DNA of 64,000 nucleotides from Holophagaceae bacterium. GTDB taxonomy: Bacteria > Acidobacteriota > Holophagae > Holophagales > Holophagaceae. The DNA lies in NCBI GenBank assembly GCA_023257195.1, contig JALRCU010000009.1, forward strand, positions 1 to 64,000, in the 5' to 3' direction. The notes under the pieces were generated by a model. It was not told the origin of the DNA. It saw nothing but the letters and a program-made list of their open reading frames with translations, and did no database searches. The position numbers and the translations under genes are program-made. Each line of letters opens with the position of its first letter. The first letter of the stretch is position 1. Shown in pieces: positions 38,659 through 47,092 of this stretch.

Positions 38659-39255
38659 ATGATAGGTCTCGTCAAAGGTACATTATTCAGCAAGCAAACC
38701 CATCAAGCGATTATCGAATGCGCAGGAGTAGGCTATGTCTGTTCGATTTCTTCATCTACCTTCGCACACTTGCCGCCTGAAGGATCTTCTGTACTGCTTT
38801 ATACCGAACTTGTTGTAAGAGAGAATGATATTAGTCTTGTTGGATTTTATAGTTTGGAAGAAAAAGAATTGTATATGAAACTTATTCAAGTTGACGGTAT
38901 TGGTACAAAATTAGCTTTGGATATTCTTGGATCACAGAGTTATGGCGAACTCATTCGGGCTATTCAAGCAAGAAATATTGATTACCTAGTATCAATCAAA
39001 GGTATAGGAAAAAAGACTGCTGAAAAAATATGCTTCCAGTTGAGTGAGAAACTTGGCGGCATATCGGGACTCCATGGAATTTTGGAATCTTCTCTTTCAA
39101 GTCCATTAGAAAAGGATCTTAAATCTGCCCTAATCAATCTAGGCTACCGGGACGACGCAATTCGGCAGGCTATAAACCAAATCAGAGCGCTTGATCCAGC
39201 GCCATCTCTAGAAGAGTCTATCAAGTTGGTTTTACGAAAGGATAGTAAAAAATAG
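38659..39255 (+). CDS. ruvA: Holliday junction branch migration protein RuvA
   Basis: RuvA binds Holliday junctions and loads the RuvB motor. The 198-residue protein has the N-terminal OB fold (MIGLVKGTLFSKQ, ECAGVGYVCSIS), two helix-hairpin-helix motifs (LIQVDGIGTKLALDIL near residue 77 and LVSIKGIGKKTAEKI near 112) and the C-terminal RuvB-binding domain (ALINLGYRDDAIRQAI). All are complete. Neither ruvB nor ruvC is adjacent. The gene is convergent with smc; 8 nt separate the two stops. Confidence 0.97.
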   Translation: MIGLVKGTLFSKQTHQAIIECAGVGYVCSISSSTFAHLPPEGSSVLLYTELVVRENDISLVGFYSLEEKELYMKLIQVDGIGTKLALDILGSQSYGELIRAIQARNIDYLVSIKGIGKKTAEKICFQLSEKLGGISGLHGILESSLSSPLEKDLKSALINLGYRDDAIRQAINQIRALDPAPSLEESIKLVLRKDSKK

Positions 39256-39263
39256 GACCGTCC

Positions 39264-41945
39264 CTACTGGACATCCACTATTTTTTTTGCCTCTGCAAAC
39301 TCAACGCTGACGATCTGAGAGCATCCGGGTTCATAGTGAGTAACGCCGTAGAGGGAATCGCATTCCACCATTGTTGATGTCTGGTGAGTAATAACTATGA
39401 ACTGGGTTTGTTTGGACATTTTTTTTACGAGTTCAGCAAAACTCTTGGTCTTCACTTGGTCTAATGCCGCATCAACTTCATCTAAAATACAAAAGGGTGA
39501 TGGTTTGAAGTGAAAAATAGCAAAAAGTAAAGAAATTGCAGCTAGGGCTTTTTCGCCTCCAGAAAGAAGGTTGATAGTTTTGGGTGTTTTACCTGGGGGT
39601 TGTGCCATGATCTCGATTCCGCAGTCAAGAATATCCTCTGTTTCATCAAGGGTTAATTTAGCTGTACCTCCCCCAAAGAGATCTACAAATACTTCTTTAA
39701 ATTTTTCATTAATAAAATCGAAAGCCTCCTTAAATCTAGCTTTTGATGTCTCGTTAATCTCATCGATTGTAAGCTCAAGATTTTTGATTGCTTCCGTCAC
39801 GTCCTGTCGCTGAGCGATCATGTCGGTCAGGCGAGACTCTGAAGTTTCTAGTTCTTCAACAGCTAATGCATTCACGGTTCCAATGTCCATTCTTTTACTT
39901 TGTAGCTCTGTAATTTGTGTTTGATAAAAAAGTTCCCCTTCTTTCCAGAGATTGCGCTCTTCTTCGGAAATAGTGGCAATAAAAGCCTGAGGATCCATCC
40001 TGAAAGCTATTTCAATTTCCCTTGAGAGGGTGTCAAGAAAACCATTAATCTCTGTTGCTTTGACTACGATATCAGTCCTAAGATTTCGGGCATTATCGAG
40101 CACCTCTTGGAATTCACGCGTTCCCCTCTCGAGGTCTTTGAGTTGTTCTGCTTCGGTCTCTAGGATGGGTTGATAATCCGTGAGTTCTTTTTGAAACTCT
40201 TCTCTTTGAATTAATAAGTTTTGAACTTCAACCTCTATCTCGGCAACACGAACCACAGCCTGTTCGCTTTTTATCCTGAAGTCTTCCTCATCTTTAATCA
40301 ACCGTTTTCGTTCTACATCAAGTTCAAATTGTGTTTTTTGGCTTGCTTTGTACTGCGTTTGGATCGCGTCTCTTCGTGCCCACGAAGCGTCGCGATCTCG
40401 TGCTGTTTTGAAGTTGGAATTTCTAAGTTCTTCTACGTGAGTTTGTTTTGTAGCCAATTGTATTGAAAGCTCGGCAATTTTTGAGTCCCGTGCACTATCT
40501 TGTTCAATGGCAGCGTCGGAATTTTCTCCAAGTAAGCGATTATTAGTTTTAATTTCACTTTGGAGAGATTCTGAAGCCTGACCAAGATAATCTTTCGCTG
40601 TCAGGATATCCCGTGACTCAAGTGCCCTACGAATGTTTTCGTCTACAGATTGAAGAGACGTATTAGATGCCTCAAGTCGCTCCTGATAGCGGGTCAATTT
40701 AATATTTTGAGAGCTTGTTTTTTGAGACCGTATCTCCTCTAAATCGAGTTCTAACTTTCGAGTAATACCCGAGGCAAGGGTTAAGGCTTCGTCCGAGATT
40801 CGCAAGAGTGCCTCTTTATCTTCTAAAGATTTATTCGCCTCGACTAGTTGGGATTCAAGCTCAGCTAGCATTTTGGATTCGGACAATTGTCGTATGCCTA
40901 ATTCTTCTAATCGACCAGAGAGCCGTTGCCGTTGCACTTTGGCTTCTTCTTGAAATTGTATTTGGAACTTCTTTTCTTGCTCATTCAGGGAGAGTCTCTG
41001 ATCCAAAGCCATAATGCTTCTTCCGCGCTCATTTTGAGAGTGCTGTTGCCTCTCTAGAGCAGCTTTGAGCCCCTCAACTGCAGAAACCTTATCAGCGACC
41101 TGAGCGGTGAGGTCGCCCACTTGGCGTTCTATTTCATCGCGTTGTTTTTGGATATCTCTTCTCGCCTTTTCAATATCTTGCCAGCGTCCTGCCAGGAGAA
41201 TTCTCTGAAATTTTTCGATTTCAGAATCAATTGCAGCGGCCTTTTTGGCCTGAGCAGCTTGTCGTTTTAGGCTTCCCATTTGCTTGGACAACTCATGAAT
41301 TACGTCATCGAGTCTAACGAGATTAGCTCTTGTATCATCTAGCCGTCGCTCTGCTTCAATTTTTCTGACCTTATAGCGAGTAATACCCGCAGCTTCTTCA
41401 ATTAAAGATCTTCGATCTTGTGGAGTTTTATTAAGTATCAAATCTATTTGACCCTGTTGAATATATGAATAAGCTCTCGTGCCCATTCCTGTATCCATGA
41501 GTAGATTTTGGATATCTCTTAATCTTGATTCTTTGCCATCGATTCGATACTCACTATTTGAATCCCGATAGAGTCTTCGGGAAATGGATATTTCTTTCAT
41601 GATCGATGGATTACTTTGATCCGGCATCTCCATTAGAACCTTCACTTCAGCAAACCCCATAGCCTTTCGCTTTATGGTTCCCGCAAAAATCACTTCAGAC
41701 ATTTCACTGCTTCTCAGTACGGTAGGTCTTTGTTCACCTAAGGCCCACGATATCCCATCCCCGATATTAGACTTGCCGCATCCATTGGGACCGACAACTC
41801 CGGTCATACCTGGCTTGAACATTAATTTGTAGGTATCCGGGAATGACTTAAACCCATGTAATTCAATGCTAATGAGACGCAAAGGGGGGTAGCTCCAAGG
41901 TCTTGAGATTAGGGGAATACTGTAGAAAACACCTTCTACTTTCAT
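39264..41945 (-). CDS. smc: Chromosome segregation SMC ATPase lacking a recognisable hinge
   Basis: SMC proteins organise chromosomes with ScpA/B. The N-terminal head has LRLISIELHGFKSFPD (residues 22-37), Walker A GPNGCGKS (52-59) and the FAGTIKRKAMGFAEV R-loop. The C-terminal head has LLSGGEKALAAISLLF near 791 and Walker B FCILDEVDAALD near 818. Between them, ~560 residues are almost entirely coiled coil. The ~150-residue globular hinge in the middle is absent: only a short glycine/asparagine turn (NRLLGENSD near residue 470) separates two coils. At 893 residues it is ~250-300 shorter than typical SMC. A TTG at 41882 would give the usual SMC start; the ATG at 41945 adds 21 residues. Confidence 0.88.
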   Translation of the reverse strand: MKVEGVFYSIPLISRPWSYPPLRLISIELHGFKSFPDTYKLMFKPGMTGVVGPNGCGKSNIGDGISWALGEQRPTVLRSSEMSEVIFAGTIKRKAMGFAEVKVLMEMPDQSNPSIMKEISISRRLYRDSNSEYRIDGKESRLRDIQNLLMDTGMGTRAYSYIQQGQIDLILNKTPQDRRSLIEEAAGITRYKVRKIEAERRLDDTRANLVRLDDVIHELSKQMGSLKRQAAQAKKAAAIDSEIEKFQRILLAGRWQDIEKARRDIQKQRDEIERQVGDLTAQVADKVSAVEGLKAALERQQHSQNERGRSIMALDQRLSLNEQEKKFQIQFQEEAKVQRQRLSGRLEELGIRQLSESKMLAELESQLVEANKSLEDKEALLRISDEALTLASGITRKLELDLEEIRSQKTSSQNIKLTRYQERLEASNTSLQSVDENIRRALESRDILTAKDYLGQASESLQSEIKTNNRLLGENSDAAIEQDSARDSKIAELSIQLATKQTHVEELRNSNFKTARDRDASWARRDAIQTQYKASQKTQFELDVERKRLIKDEEDFRIKSEQAVVRVAEIEVEVQNLLIQREEFQKELTDYQPILETEAEQLKDLERGTREFQEVLDNARNLRTDIVVKATEINGFLDTLSREIEIAFRMDPQAFIATISEEERNLWKEGELFYQTQITELQSKRMDIGTVNALAVEELETSESRLTDMIAQRQDVTEAIKNLELTIDEINETSKARFKEAFDFINEKFKEVFVDLFGGGTAKLTLDETEDILDCGIEIMAQPPGKTPKTINLLSGGEKALAAISLLFAIFHFKPSPFCILDEVDAALDQVKTKSFAELVKKMSKQTQFIVITHQTSTMVECDSLYGVTHYEPGCSQIVSVEFAEAKKIVDVQ

Positions 41946-42180
41946 ACCACGTCAGCCCCCTAGAAGGGAAAGGGTCTTTTGGGGGTTAGAATTAATACTC
42001 CTGCCATCTTGGAGATACCTTCTTGCACATTTTTGAGTGGGCTAATATTGATCCCCCCTTCAAGAGTCTTTTCTACCCCTTGATAGGCATAGCATTATTT
42101 AGTTGGGGGTGGTTCTTGGGTCAAAATAGAGCGGAAAGAATTTTCAAAAAAATGCAACAAAACAAGGATAAATAGGCTGT

Positions 42181-42921
42181 ATGAGTTCCATTTTGGATCA
42201 AAAACAATCCGGCGCAATACTAATTGAGCCTTCGAGGATTTTGATTAACCAAATCTCATACCCCTCAAGCCTTAGTCAGATCGGTGAATGCATCGAGAAA
42301 GCCTTATTGGATATCCCGCCTCATCCTTGCAGAGTGATTCTTGATGATTTTATAGTTCCTTCTTATCTTATTGAGTCTATTGAGGATTTACCGTCAGATT
42401 CAGAGTCCCAATCGGCTTTTTTTCTGTGGAGATACCAGCAACTATCAGCCGTAAACAGCGAATTTAAAGTAATAGCTCACCCGCTGAATGGAAAAGGATG
42501 GATCCTGAGCGGAATGCCATTTAGTCTCGTTGAGACTATTGAGGAGACCTTACAGTCTTTGGGCTTCCAGGCTTCATCCATAGTCCCTAAATGGTGCTAC
42601 CTTGCAAACCACTTATTTGTCACCACCAAAGAGGAGCCTTCGTGTCTTATTAGTCTTTCAGCTAGTGAGCATGGTCGATATCGTGGAACCGTGATCGCTT
42701 GGAACGACTCTCTAAATCTATTCCGTCAGTGGTCAGAGGAAGCAAATCTTCAGACTTGGAGCCAAGAAAGGATATATCCCACTTTGGCGTATTTGGAACG
42801 AACTTGGTCTCGAAAACCAAAATTATATATTTATGGATCTTCGACGCCATGGGCCATCAGCGGGTATCAGCCCGTGTTTCTCGAAGAAGATATCTTTACA
42901 GGCAGTCCCCATGTGCCCTAA
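42181..42921 (+). CDS. PilM-like pilus assembly protein (divergent)
   Basis: The 246-residue protein opens the + strand group that continues with PilN-, PilO-, PilP- and PilQ-like genes, so by position it is PilM, the cytoplasmic actin-like partner of PilN. The sequence is divergent: I can match weakly only a FFLWRYQQLSAV segment near residue 80 and a LISLSASEHGRYRGTVIAW strand pair near 160. It is shorter than typical PilM (~350 residues), and the nucleotide-binding motifs are not visible. Its last 11 nt overlap pilN. The identification is by context. Confidence 0.5.
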   Translation: MSSILDQKQSGAILIEPSRILINQISYPSSLSQIGECIEKALLDIPPHPCRVILDDFIVPSYLIESIEDLPSDSESQSAFFLWRYQQLSAVNSEFKVIAHPLNGKGWILSGMPFSLVETIEETLQSLGFQASSIVPKWCYLANHLFVTTKEEPSCLISLSASEHGRYRGTVIAWNDSLNLFRQWSEEANLQTWSQERIYPTLAYLERTWSRKPKLYIYGSSTPWAISGYQPVFLEEDIFTGSPHVP

Positions 42922-43522
42922 ACCGATTGAAATAAATTTTATTACAACTAGATCTTGGTGGAACCCCAAGCAAAGCAAGTGGGGTCGTTATATATGGCTA
43001 TCAGGGATTCCCTTGCTCATTCTGGTATCCATAATACTTCTTTTCATGGGTATAAGAATTATCTCGGTTTCCTATGTGACTTCTCAAAATACTCAACAAA
43101 TAGAACTTTCGCTTAGCCAGATGAAGGAAATCCAAAGGCAATTATCAGTTTTTGACATAGACCGTGAGACACCAAAATGGAAATTGGCTGAAAAACTCCT
43201 TCAGGAAAAGACTATTCCTTGGTCTAGACTTCTTTATGAACTCGAAAGTGCATTACCTGACGGAGTAAGAGTTAGGAATATTCAGAAAACACGGGGCGTA
43301 GATCAGCAAGTTGTGCTTAAATTCCAAGCAGAATCTACAACGGAAGAAAGTAAAGTCAAATTTATCCAAAAGCTCGGTTCAAGCCCGATCTTTAGGGAAC
43401 TTATCTTGGAAAGAGAAAGCCAAGGGCCTCAGGGCGGATGGGAGTTCGAAATGACGCTTCCCGTCAAAAATATTATTCCACCAACCACCCTGCCCACTCC
43501 CAGTGAGAAAGGTGAACTTTAA
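42911..43522 (+). CDS. pilN: PilN-like type IV pilus inner-membrane protein
   Basis: PilN is a bitopic inner-membrane protein that pairs with PilO. The 203-residue protein has a short cytoplasmic N-terminus (MCPKPIEINFITTRSW, the PilM-binding region), a transmembrane helix near residues 27-49, and a periplasmic coil and ferredoxin-like fold that includes LYELESALPDGVRVRNIQKT. I start at ATG 42911 because the N-terminus then has the 'IxxNF/L' pattern of PilN; a longer frame from 42833 lies inside pilM. The stop and the pilO ATG share one base (TAATG). Confidence 0.8.
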   Translation: MCPKPIEINFITTRSWWNPKQSKWGRYIWLSGIPLLILVSIILLFMGIRIISVSYVTSQNTQQIELSLSQMKEIQRQLSVFDIDRETPKWKLAEKLLQEKTIPWSRLLYELESALPDGVRVRNIQKTRGVDQQVVLKFQAESTTEESKVKFIQKLGSSPIFRELILERESQGPQGGWEFEMTLPVKNIIPPTTLPTPSEKGEL

Positions 43523-44094
43523 TGGAAAAGATTCATCAGGCTACTAAGCATTTAATATTGGGTTCTCTAGCTTGGGCCTTGTGTTTATGCTCAATTTTTA
43601 TAGTTATACCAAAACTACAAAATTCAATTATAAGAAAAACAGAAGCGCAAAAGGACTCTGTACTAGACTTTACCAATAAAAAGAATCAGCTCGACAATCT
43701 CATCAAATTATCAAATAAGATTCGCCAAGGCCAAGATTCCTTAGTCCGCATTCAAAGTCTCTTACCAAATATCCCGTCAAGTGAACTTCAGCTTTCCTTG
43801 AGTCGAGAGCTGCATAAATTATCAAAGGAAAATAATGTCAGGTTGCAAAGTGTCAAGTACGCCAGACCATCGAGGGAAGGACAAAAAAACATAGAACTTG
43901 AATCTATTGAATCTGAATTAGTCGCAACTGGAATATACAATGATCTTCGCGGGTTTATGTTTTCTTTAGAAAAAGCCGGGCTTCCTTATGCTGTCCGAGA
44001 GGCTCGTCTAGAAGAGTCTCCAGAGGGTTTGAAGCTCACCGTGAACCTGAGAGCTTTCAAAAAGCCTGACGTTTCATCGCGTGAGGGTTACTAA
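43522..44094 (+). CDS. pilO: PilO-like type IV pilus inner-membrane protein
   Basis: The 190-residue protein has one transmembrane helix (residues ~10-32) and a periplasmic coiled coil (RKTEAQKDSVLDFTNKKNQL) followed by a ferredoxin-like domain with IPSSELQLSLSRELHKLSKE and LRGFMFSLEKAG. This is the PilO layout; PilN and PilO form a heterodimer linking the cytoplasmic PilM to PilP. Both junctions are TAATG, giving strict translational coupling from pilN through pilP. Confidence 0.82.
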   Translation: MEKIHQATKHLILGSLAWALCLCSIFIVIPKLQNSIIRKTEAQKDSVLDFTNKKNQLDNLIKLSNKIRQGQDSLVRIQSLLPNIPSSELQLSLSRELHKLSKENNVRLQSVKYARPSREGQKNIELESIESELVATGIYNDLRGFMFSLEKAGLPYAVREARLEESPEGLKLTVNLRAFKKPDVSSREGY

Positions 44095-44720
44095 TGAATC
44101 TCTTTCGAATTTTATTGGAAAAAATAAACCTGACCATCTCGCTTTCAAGTATGAAGCAAGAGATCTTTACAAATCGAAGAGTCCAATTAGGTATGGCAGT
44201 TCTAGCAGTGTTATTGGGCCTACTAATGTGGCCGAATTCTGGTCAATCCAAAAAAATTCTTCCAGGCGCAGAGTTGATTTCTATGGCAGGTCTACGATCA
44301 CTCCCTGATCTTTCTGCATTAGACCAATCTTCTGAGATACCCCCAATACCCAAACTACTCAGAGATCCCTTTTTATTCGACGCTCCTAGACCCCCTGAAA
44401 TTATAAAGAAAACTAAGCCCCTACCTCCACCTCCTCCACCTACCGATGAAGAGATTGCCCAGAAGCAGTTAGAACAGGACCGGCAATTAGAGATGTCTGC
44501 AGCTCCCAATGAGTACAGATACATTGGGTTTCTGAGAAGCAGTAAGGCGGGGTTATCTGCAGCATTCATTAACGAAGAAGAACCTATCAATTTAAAAATA
44601 GGATCGATTATAAGAGGCCGATGGAAATTAATTGAAATAAAAGAAGATGCTGTACGATTTCAAAACCTTAAATATCCTGATTTATTCTTCGTGGCGCCAT
44701 CTAGCACGCTTGAAAATTAG
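44094..44720 (+). CDS. PilP-like periplasmic pilus assembly protein
   Basis: The 208-residue protein has an N-terminal membrane helix (residues ~32-48), then a proline-rich linker (KPLPPPPPPTDEE near 103-115) and a C-terminal beta domain (YRYIGFLRSSKAGLSAAF ... LKIGSIIRGRWKLIEIKEDAV) like the HR/PilP domain. PilP normally is a lipoprotein that contacts the secretin; here the anchor is a transmembrane helix, closer to GspC. The role is inferred from position before the secretin and from the domain pattern. Confidence 0.65.
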   Translation: MNLFRILLEKINLTISLSSMKQEIFTNRRVQLGMAVLAVLLGLLMWPNSGQSKKILPGAELISMAGLRSLPDLSALDQSSEIPPIPKLLRDPFLFDAPRPPEIIKKTKPLPPPPPPTDEEIAQKQLEQDRQLEMSAAPNEYRYIGFLRSSKAGLSAAFINEEEPINLKIGSIIRGRWKLIEIKEDAVRFQNLKYPDLFFVAPSSTLEN

Positions 44721-44767
44721 GTAGATTTATTCAAACCCCCTTTTCTGAGAGATACTAGAGAGTGACT

Positions 44768-47092
44768 ATGACAATCTCAAAACATACTAAGTCTTTCTTT
44801 ATTCTTATAATTTTTACTTTAGGGCAATTAGGTTGTGCTCTCCAAAAGGCTAACCAAGCCTTTGAAGAGGGCCGATATGAAGACTCTATTCAGGGGTATC
44901 GCACCATTGTCCAAAACGATCCTTCGAATGTGAAAGCTCGAATAGGTCTTCAGCGCTCTGCCCAACAAGCCGCTGAACAAGTATTAAGGGAAGCCCAAGA
45001 ACTGGAGCGAAAAGGGGCTAGTGATATAGCAATTCAGAACTTAGTCGCTAAGGCACTCACATTCAATTTTGATAATCAAATTGCTCAGGATTGGCTTCTG
45101 CGACTTCAACAAAAAATCGAAAGATCCAAAACTCAATCTACTCCCGAAGATGTTGACGATATTAAAGCTCGGGTTGAACAAGAAAATACTCTTCTTCTTA
45201 ATCCTAATTCATTGGAAGGTATTGATATTTCATTTACCCGTCGCACTTCTCTTAAAGAAATTTTAGGCACCCTGGGTAAGGCTGCCGGTATAAATGTGAT
45301 TCTTCACACAAGTTTTCAAGATAATTCCATCTCTATCGATCTAAAAGGCCTCTCATTCTATAAGGCCCTTGATACATTGATGCTACAAAATGAAATGTTT
45401 TATAAAGTTGTGGATGGGAACACCATTATGGTGTTCAAGGCTACTCCCCAAAATCGGGAGCAATTCGAGAATCAAATTATTAAAACCTACTTTTTATCAA
45501 ATGCAGAACCCAATGAGGTGCGTGCAACTTTAGTTACTCTAATTCCTCAACTCAGGGTATTCACCGATAAGCGTATGAATGCGATTATTATCAAAGCAAA
45601 ACCCTTAGAACTAGGAATAACTGATCGTGTAATTGGTCAGCTCGACAAAGCTCTGCCTGAGGTAATGGTGTATTTAGAACTTATGGAAGTTACCGAAAGC
45701 AGCCTTCAGAAAGTTGGGCTCCTTCCCGTACTTGGTGCGGGCGATGATTCAGGCACTTTTCGCATAGGAGCTACCACAGTCAACCAAAGCAGTGGTTTAA
45801 ATTCAGCATCAAGTACCCTTTCTATTTCGTCTGCCAATATTCGAACCCTATTTCCAAACTTGGCCCTTGATTTTCTCAAGAGCAACGGAGATGCGCGTTT
45901 AGTCGCCAGTCCTAACGTCAGAACTGTCAGTGGCGGAAAAGGCGAAGTCAACATCGGGGACAAAATCAGCACTACTCAGTCGGCACTCACGGGTGGACTT
46001 TTGGGAGCCAATCAAACAGGAACCCAGGGTTCTTCCAACGCCGCAGGTTTCGGAGGCTTAGGGCAAGTATCTTTTAGCTATGAAGACGTAGGGGTAAAGA
46101 TCGCTGTAGAACCTAGAGTTCATTACAACGGCGAAATAACTCTCAAAATAGAAGCTTCTGTGACAACTCTCAAGGCGGGCTCGACTCCCGGACGGCCTGA
46201 CCTAGGTCGAAGAGAAATCAAAACAACAGCTCGATTAAAAGATGGAGAAACAGCTATCTTTGGAGGACTTCTCAAGGATGAAGAGCAAAAGCAATTCCAG
46301 GGCATATGGGGAATATCAGAAATGCCCCTTATTGGTAGATTGATAGGCAATACTCGTAATCAGAAGGCCAAAACGGATGTGATTTTAACCATTAGGGCCG
46401 TTCAAGTGAGGAAACCTGTTCTCACGGAAACAGACTTTAAAGGCTTCAATCCTGAGAATGTAGAGGGAGACTCTAAGCCCTCAACACCCAAAGAGATTAA
46501 AAATAACCAAAAGGAAATACCCGCTACCCCCATTGAGTCTAATCCTGTTTCACCTGCAATAGAAAAAAAGGTCAATGCCCAGGAGATGCCTATCTCGATT
46601 CCACCGGAATCAATCAAAGAGACCTTGAGAATTGTCCCCAAAGCAGACTTAGCGACTGGAAAAGTAATAGCTGTTCCCGTAAAGACCAAACCTACGGACT
46701 CTGATTTGATTATTTTTATGTCCCCGCCCGTCTCGCAAGCAATCAAGGGAGATAACCTCACTGTTGAATTCAATATAAGTGGGGGAGCTGGTATTACCTC
46801 GGGTCAACTAGATCTGTCTATCCCACCGGGACTAAAGATTCTAAGTGTCAAGCAAGGGGATTTTCTTCTTAACGATTCAGGGACTCTGGATTATACCGAT
46901 GACAGTTCGGGTATCTGCCGTATTAGCTTCAAGCGAAATGGACAAGGGGAAGACAGTGGTAATTTGCTCTCCCTCGCTTTAACTGCCGTCCAATCAGGTA
47001 ATGCGCCCATAGTTATTCAAAGGGCAGGTATCTTCATTGGAGCCAACCCCATATCGGCACGTTGGGTGAATTCGCTTTTCAATATTCAGTAA
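44768..47092 (+). CDS. Secretin (PilQ/GspD-like) with TPR-like N-terminus and C-terminal cohesin-like domain
   Basis: Secretins form the outer-membrane gate for pili or secreted proteins. Order: a hydrophobic N-terminus ending LGQLGC (atypical lipobox), TPR-like repeats at ~30-75 (ANQAFEEGRYEDSIQGY), an STN/N0 domain at ~158-225, a linker, the secretin beta-barrel at ~300-545 (VMVYLELMEV to TDVILTIRAV), and a cohesin-like beta-sandwich at ~650-774. That last domain is unusual in PilQ but known in Acidobacteriota and some Desulfuromonadota. I choose ATG 44768 because AGAGAG lies upstream; a GTG at 44762 is possible. Gene order favours PilQ of a type IV pilus; a type II-like system is not excluded. 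Confidence 0.88.
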   Translation: MTISKHTKSFFILIIFTLGQLGCALQKANQAFEEGRYEDSIQGYRTIVQNDPSNVKARIGLQRSAQQAAEQVLREAQELERKGASDIAIQNLVAKALTFNFDNQIAQDWLLRLQQKIERSKTQSTPEDVDDIKARVEQENTLLLNPNSLEGIDISFTRRTSLKEILGTLGKAAGINVILHTSFQDNSISIDLKGLSFYKALDTLMLQNEMFYKVVDGNTIMVFKATPQNREQFENQIIKTYFLSNAEPNEVRATLVTLIPQLRVFTDKRMNAIIIKAKPLELGITDRVIGQLDKALPEVMVYLELMEVTESSLQKVGLLPVLGAGDDSGTFRIGATTVNQSSGLNSASSTLSISSANIRTLFPNLALDFLKSNGDARLVASPNVRTVSGGKGEVNIGDKISTTQSALTGGLLGANQTGTQGSSNAAGFGGLGQVSFSYEDVGVKIAVEPRVHYNGEITLKIEASVTTLKAGSTPGRPDLGRREIKTTARLKDGETAIFGGLLKDEEQKQFQGIWGISEMPLIGRLIGNTRNQKAKTDVILTIRAVQVRKPVLTETDFKGFNPENVEGDSKPSTPKEIKNNQKEIPATPIESNPVSPAIEKKVNAQEMPISIPPESIKETLRIVPKADLATGKVIAVPVKTKPTDSDLIIFMSPPVSQAIKGDNLTVEFNISGGAGITSGQLDLSIPPGLKILSVKQGDFLLNDSGTLDYTDDSSGICRISFKRNGQGEDSGNLLSLALTAVQSGNAPIVIQRAGIFIGANPISARWVNSLFNIQ

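What the first reader, a model, noticed from the sequence alone, without database searches (positions are those of the whole stretch)
39264..41945. SMC ATPase with complete heads but no hinge domain
Both ATPase half-heads are intact (Walker A GPNGCGKS, signature LLSGGEK, Walker B ILDEVDAALD), but the central ~560 residues are coiled coil with no ~150-residue globular hinge. Only a short turn (NRLLGENSD) appears near the middle. The protein is 893 residues instead of about 1150-1200. SMC normally dimerises through the hinge, so this version would need another mode of dimerisation or a different architecture.
Basis: partly seen in the sequence, partly recalled or inferred. Interest (0 to 1): 0.7.

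Follow-up and report, generated by a model that had tools for sequence, protein, structure and literature searches.

The report
Naturally hinge-less chromosomal SMC
In a genus of freshwater Acidobacteriota with very small genomes, the only SMC chromosome-organising protein has lost its hinge, the domain that normally joins two SMC molecules, while its ATPase ends and partner genes are kept, making it a natural test of whether an SMC machine needs a hinge.

Summary
The window encodes the genome's only detectable SMC (NCBIfam TIGR02168 equivalog, 720 bits against a 567 cut-off). Its ATPase half-heads are complete and nothing resembling a hinge lies between them. A second species of the genus (88% identical; Lake Biwa MAG) has the same architecture, and dN/dS is about 0.05, so it is neither an artefact nor a decaying gene. 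In the 93-genome class survey, no other genome had an unbroken full-length match. The other Holophagaceae have SMCs of about 1170 aa at the same locus (beside pilMNOPQ) with a divergent hinge that Pfam misses but AlphaFold/Foldseek identifies. About 298 residues were lost, near-symmetrically: the hinge plus roughly 75 aa of each arm. ScpA and ParB are intact; scpB is cut by contig ends. The true start is probably TTG, giving 872 aa.

Best explanation (inferred): a 'core-only' condensin in which heads, ScpA(B) and arm contacts hold the dimer, keeping the head-driven motor or clamp but losing hinge gating. Engineered Wadjet without hinge and periphery still extrudes if artificially dimerised (PMC12647877).

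Not the first natural case: hinge-less SMCs were reported in marine Actinobacteria (PMC12153180). This appears independent, in another phylum. How it dimerises is untested.

The parts
   Evidence: TIGR02168 720 bits; all family homologues start MRLI(S/A) or similar here; upstream ATG frame interrupted in the sister species
41883..41945 (-). 21-codon ATG extension, probably untranslated leader
   Evidence: not conserved as protein; frame stopped in L053; pLDDT < 50
41388..41882 (-). N-terminal half-head (residues 22-186)
   Evidence: SMC_N; 96% identical between the two species, dN/dS 0.02
41769..41792 (-). Walker A GPNGCGKS (residues 52-59)
   Evidence: sequence; invariant in 20 SMCs
40617..41387 (-). 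N-terminal coiled-coil arm (residues 187-443), colinear with relatives to about residue 425
   Evidence: AF2 helices 189-262 and 266-443; family HMM 1-404 matches residues 22-425
40521..40616 (-). short helical tip (residues 444-475) in place of the hinge; fast-evolving, no Cys (no zinc hook)
   Evidence: AF2; region 420-500 is 59% identical against 87-96% elsewhere; cysteines only in heads
39675..40520 (-). C-terminal coiled-coil arm with helix breaks near 648-670 in the joint region (residues 476-757)
   Evidence: AF2; family HMM resumes at position 723 (window protein) or 740 (sister species)
39267..39674 (-). C-terminal half-head (residues 758-893)
   Evidence: 94% identical between species, dN/dS 0.02; Foldseek match to the B. 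subtilis SMC head-ScpA complex 5h66 at 50% identity over 174 columns
39549..39569 (-). ABC signature LLSGGEK (residues 793-799)
   Evidence: sequence
39459..39488 (-). Walker B ILDEVDAALD (residues 820-829), followed by QVKTK where hinge-bearing relatives have (E/D)(A/P)N
42181..47092 (+). pilM-pilN-pilO-pilP-pilQ operon divergent from smc; conserved neighbour of smc across the family
   Evidence: PilN and Secretin Pfam hits (pilM, pilO and pilP named by position); synteny in 15 of 16 family loci
38659..39255 (+). ruvA, convergent with smc
   Evidence: RuvA_N, RuvA_C

Best explanation
This is the genuine chromosomal SMC of a streamlined freshwater Holophagaceae lineage (most likely GTDB genus UBA12189, 'Acidiparvus'), in which the hinge and about 75 residues of flanking coiled coil on each arm were deleted in place after the genus split from its hinge-bearing relatives. 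SHOWN: single copy, intact ATPase motifs, strong purifying selection, kleisin ScpA and loader ParB retained, no globular hinge. INFERRED: it works as a 'core-only' condensin. Two protomers are joined at the heads by ATP-dependent engagement and by ScpA, which bridges the neck of one and the cap of the other, and are held along the rod by arm-arm and tip contacts instead of a hinge toroid. It is loaded by ParB and performs head-driven clamping or loop extrusion, but without the hinge gate for bypassing obstacles and with weaker closure at the tip.
For: TIGR02168 equivalog above cut-off; sole SMC in the genome; no hinge by Pfam or by family hinge profile; same architecture in a second species, dN/dS 0.05, heads 0.02; only these two of 93 class genomes have an unbroken full-length match; relatives' middle domain is an SMC hinge by AF2/Foldseek; orthologous position next to pilM-Q and nesting with Holophagaceae; arms trimmed about equally; full-length ScpA and ParB retained. 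Literature: JetC core lacking elbow-to-hinge still extrudes (inferred from plasmid cleavage) when the ring is closed by a crosslink (PMC12647877); Smc arms contact each other at seven places and contribute to dimerisation of hinge-less B. subtilis Smc (PMC5526789).
Against: No direct evidence of dimerisation. The tip, the obvious place for a substitute interface, is the least conserved part (59% identity; pLDDT 52-70). The JetC core needed an engineered crosslink, and a B. subtilis strain with the hinge region deleted from smc is described as a smc null (PMC5344682). scpB could not be seen whole in any genome of the genus. AF2 pTM is only 0.46, so arm geometry is unreliable.
Confidence: 0.55

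Rival explanations
1. Clamp, not motor: without a hinge the protein no longer forms a closed ring and does not extrude loops; it acts as an ATP-driven DNA clamp or tether at ParB/parS and elsewhere, with heads engaging transiently and ScpA as the only lasting link.
For: Tip poorly conserved; JetC core activity is lost when its artificial closure is reduced (PMC12647877); the head machinery and ScpA are the conserved parts.
Against: About 260 aa of each arm is still under strong purifying selection (dN/dS about 0.04-0.05), which a simple head clamp would not obviously need.
Confidence: 0.28
2. Dedicated new tip dimeriser: the 28-residue tip helix (447-474) forms a compact intermolecular bundle that replaces the hinge, making a shortened but closed ring, as a zinc hook can.
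For: AF2 predicts a helical tip rather than a tight turn; a Rad50 zinc hook can replace the B. subtilis Smc hinge in a functional chimera (PMC5344682).
Against: Tip 59% identical between sister species, with polar and hydrophobic positions both drifting; no Cys for a zinc hook.
Confidence: 0.1
3. The hinge is supplied in trans by another protein that binds the arm tips.
For: Only that some closure would be expected.
Against: No match to PF06470 or to the family's own hinge profile up to E 10 in the genome; no split-gene remnant next to smc.
Confidence: 0.03
4. Reductive decay or assembly artefact: smc is on its way to being lost, or the hinge was dropped in assembly.
For: Streamlined 1.2 Mb genome; MAG assembly in 56 contigs.
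Against: Two separate assemblies of different species agree without a single indel; dN/dS 0.05; ATPase motifs intact.
Confidence: 0.02

Closest known systems
Hinge-less SMCs of marine Actinobacteria (PMC12153180, Environ Microbiome 2025)
   Same: SMC head plus coiled coil, no hinge, no CXXC zinc hook, not found beside a regular SMC; classed within SMC, not Rad50
   Different: Different phylum and, from synteny and tree, an apparently independent loss; here the genome context (sole SMC, ScpA, ParB), hinge-bearing sister genera and deletion boundaries are known
Bacterial Smc-ScpAB condensin (TIGR02168), e.g. B. subtilis Smc and Holophagaceae relatives
   Same: Heads, arms with helix breaks in the joint region, ScpA, ParB, orthologous locus
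   Different: No hinge; total length 872 instead of about 1170; arms shorter by about 75 aa each; altered residues after the D-loop Asp (LDQVKTK)
Engineered E. coli Wadjet-I JetC 'core' (PMC12647877)
   Same: Elbow-to-hinge periphery removed, heads and head-proximal arms kept; predicts extrusion without hinge bypass
   Different: Artificial, JetC (not SMC-ScpAB) family, needed an engineered disulphide to dimerise
Rad50/SbcC
   Same: Head plus antiparallel coiled coil without a globular hinge
   Different: Dimerises through a CXXC zinc hook; none here; the protein scores as SMC, with Rad50 models far weaker

Membership tests
Bacterial chromosomal SMC (TIGR02168) | Score above the curated equivalog cut-off | tested here: met
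   720.4 bits against 567.35
Bacterial chromosomal SMC (TIGR02168) | Complete bipartite ABC head (Walker A, signature, Walker B, H-loop) | tested here: met
   AF2/Foldseek matches SMC head structures 5xei, 5h68, 3zgx
Bacterial chromosomal SMC (TIGR02168) | Central hinge domain | tested here: not met
Bacterial chromosomal SMC (TIGR02168) | Orthologous gene position and vertical descent | tested here: met
   smc next to pilM-Q in the family; nests with Holophagaceae SMCs
Smc-ScpAB complex | Kleisin ScpA encoded | tested here: met
   full-length ScpA in all three genomes of the genus
Smc-ScpAB complex | KITE subunit ScpB encoded | tested here: inconclusive
   no Pfam match in the genus, but intact C-terminal ends run off contig ends in G001 and G002; the window's assembly also lacks the neighbouring yebC
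Smc-ScpAB complex | SMC homodimerisation | not testable with these tools
   no multimer prediction available
Hinge-less SMC of marine Actinobacteria | SMC head, coiled coil, no hinge, no CXXC | tested here: met
   description in PMC12153180
Hinge-less SMC of marine Actinobacteria | Common descent within Actinobacteria | tested here: not met
   locus and tree place it in Holophagaceae; the actinobacterial sequences themselves were not at hand for a direct comparison
Rad50/SbcC | CXXC zinc hook at the arm tip | tested here: not met
   cysteines only at 56, 775, 819, 862 and 875

The most novel reading that the evidence does not exclude
A natural condensin that has discarded the whole hinge-proximal periphery and still organises a chromosome with ScpA(B) and ParB, evolved independently in at least two aquatic lineages (marine Actinobacteria and streamlined freshwater Acidobacteriota), implying that the hinge toroid is dispensable for SMC function in vivo under some conditions.
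Probability: 0.45. Interest if true: 0.78.

Novelty: new variant of a known kind. Interest (0 to 1): 0.6.

Why it matters
The hinge is treated as essential for SMC dimerisation, DNA entrapment and loading, yet recent engineering suggests loop extrusion resides in a head-proximal core while the hinge serves obstacle bypass. A natural, single-copy, selectively maintained SMC lacking exactly the hinge and hinge-proximal coils, with hinge-bearing close relatives for comparison, makes it possible to test which SMC functions need a hinge. A second phylum with this loss suggests it may recur in streamlined aquatic bacteria.

Tried and rejected
(1) 'ScpB also lost': PF04079 found nothing in the three genus genomes, but a family-specific profile found intact scpB C-termini running off contig ends, so rejected as unproven. 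(2) The Pfam hinge model as proof of uniqueness: it also misses the whole family, whose members do have a hinge, so absence of PF06470 alone proves nothing; the case rests on length, alignment, family profile and AF2. (3) Zinc hook: no tip cysteines. (4) Hinge in trans: no hit. (5) A second SMC/MukB-like gene: none; other hits are ABC transporters. (6) Defence-system reading: PADLOC hits to mad3 and LmuB are much weaker than TIGR02168 and follow from the shared ABC head. (7) G001 could not add a third case: the whole ruvA-smc-pilM region is missing from that 84%-complete assembly. (8) A parS-like site near the genes: only one two-mismatch match, not distinguishable from chance. (9) The first ScpA comparison used the wrong strand and was redone.

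Full report
OBSERVATION. The minus-strand ORF at 39264-41945 encodes an SMC: NCBIfam TIGR02168 (chromosome segregation protein SMC, equivalog) scores 720 bits against a cut-off of 567. Walker A, signature and Walker B are at residues 52-59, 793-799 and 820-829. Pfam finds SMC_N but no SMC_hinge up to E 10. The probable start is the TTG at codon 22 (window 41882). Homologues begin at that point with MRLI, and in the sister species the upstream ATG frame ends at a stop. The protein is therefore most likely 872 aa.

NOT AN ARTEFACT. The genome is 1.195 Mb in 56 contigs and 97% complete, and holds no second SMC; the other weak hits are ABC proteins. A second species of the genus (G002, the Lake Biwa MAG BJFQ01000010.1, 'Acidobacteriota bacterium LBMAG_Acidobacteria_hypo.bin1') has the same hinge-less SMC, 88% identical with no indel. 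dN/dS between the two is 0.05 overall, 0.02 in both half-heads, 0.04-0.05 in the arms and 0.15 in the tip; dS is above 1, so these ratios are approximate. The third genome of the genus lacks the entire ruvA-smc-pilM region, an assembly gap.

RELATIVES. In a survey of 93 genomes of the class, only G000 and G002 give a single unbroken match; nearly all others give two matches separated by a gap inside frames of about 1180 aa, apart from genes cut by contig ends or genomes without a hit. PF06470 misses the entire family, so its absence alone would be no evidence. The family's middle domain nevertheless aligns to hinges of other Acidobacteriota (hhalign 93.9%, E 1.5e-7). It gives sub-threshold PF06470 scores (best 0.0023), folds confidently (pLDDT 88, pTM 0.80), and its best Foldseek matches are SMC hinges (7dg5, 2wd5, 5h69, 1gxl; probability 1.00). 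The relatives therefore have a divergent but genuine hinge. The gene is orthologous: smc lies beside pilM-Q in nearly all family loci, and the pair nests with Holophagaceae SMCs, although the outgroups are long-branched and the position inside the family is not resolved.

ANATOMY OF THE LOSS. Against a family HMM of 1170 positions, the sister-species protein (872 aa) matches 1-466 and 740-1169 with overlapping ends; the window protein matches 1-404 and 723-1170. About 298 positions are missing. With the hinge at roughly 510-662, about 70-80 residues of each arm went with it (the exact junction is uncertain by some tens of residues). AlphaFold2 of the window protein (mean pLDDT 81, pTM 0.46) shows helices 189-262, 266-443, a tip helix 447-474, then 476-648, helix breaks at about 648-670 in the joint region, and 695-757. 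Foldseek matches SMC heads with coiled coil and joint (5xei) and engaged head dimers (5h68). The remaining arms (about 260-270 aa by this reckoning) are near the 253-267 aa window in which shortened B. subtilis Smc arms regained function in PMC5344682. That is suggestive only, because the definitions of arm length differ and those constructs had a hinge.

PARTNERS. ScpA is full length in all three genomes and about 60% identical to that of hinge-bearing relatives. ParB is present in all three. ScpB first appeared lost, but a family profile found its C-terminal 38 and 29 residues running off the ends of contigs in G002 and G001, intact to the stop codon and beside yebC. The window's genome lacks yebC as well. 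The proper statement is that scpB lies in an assembly gap; that breaks recur at this place is unexplained.

MECHANISM. Shown: the heads, arms, kleisin and loader are kept and under constraint, and the hinge is gone. From the literature: B. subtilis Smc arms lie side by side with seven contact regions that contribute to dimerisation of hinge-less Smc (PMC5526789). Wadjet JetC with elbow-to-hinge replaced by nine residues still cleaves plasmid DNA, read as loop extrusion, if dimerised by a crosslink, but cannot bypass obstacles (PMC12647877). The same authors note that ParB loading at parS reduces dependence on hinge bypass, and ParB is retained here. Inferred: this is a natural core-only condensin whose dimer is maintained by head engagement, ScpA bridging and arm contacts. 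The main rival is a non-extruding clamp. A specific tip dimeriser is less likely because the tip is the least conserved region.

NOVELTY. Natural hinge-less SMCs have been reported once before, to the extent the library shows, in marine Actinobacteria, with no CXXC and unknown function (PMC12153180). Searches for 'hingeless', 'hinge-less' and similar phrases found no other natural case; subscription papers are not covered. The genus is most likely UBA12189/'Acidiparvus', described as the only streamlined Acidobacteriota (PMC11561045: 1.12-1.37 Mb, 44-49% GC, Lake Biwa among the sources); that paper does not mention SMC. Assignment of the window to this genus rests on family, genome size, the Lake Biwa sister MAG and low GC (43% in the window); it is an inference. 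The finding is a new, apparently independent variant of a recently described kind.

Noticed in passing
G002:C9 end (L111) and G001:C13 end (L112): Contigs of two different species' assemblies both end inside scpB, within about nine codons of each other, and the window's genome lacks the adjoining yebC; the cause of the recurrent break is unknown.
   Followed up: partly
window 39444-39458 (residues 830-834): After the D-loop Asp, both hinge-less SMCs read LDQVKTK where hinge-bearing relatives read LD(E/D)(A/P)N; the nearly invariant Asn is Lys here, which might alter coupling between the two ATP sites.
   Followed up: no
window 41883-42000 (-): The leader upstream of smc (TAACCCCCAAAAGACCCTTTCCCTTC...ATGAAAGTAGAAGGTG) is nearly identical in the sister species although the frame is not open there; possibly a promoter or regulatory leader.
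   Followed up: no
family f1 genomes G003-G036: The whole Holophagaceae family has an SMC hinge that Pfam PF06470 does not reach, a false negative to watch for in hinge-loss surveys.
   Followed up: yes
class f3 genomes G042, G046, G048, G050 (10-12 Mb): Four large genomes of the class gave no SMC match at the thresholds used and no ScpA match; possible loss or replacement of Smc-ScpAB.
   Followed up: no
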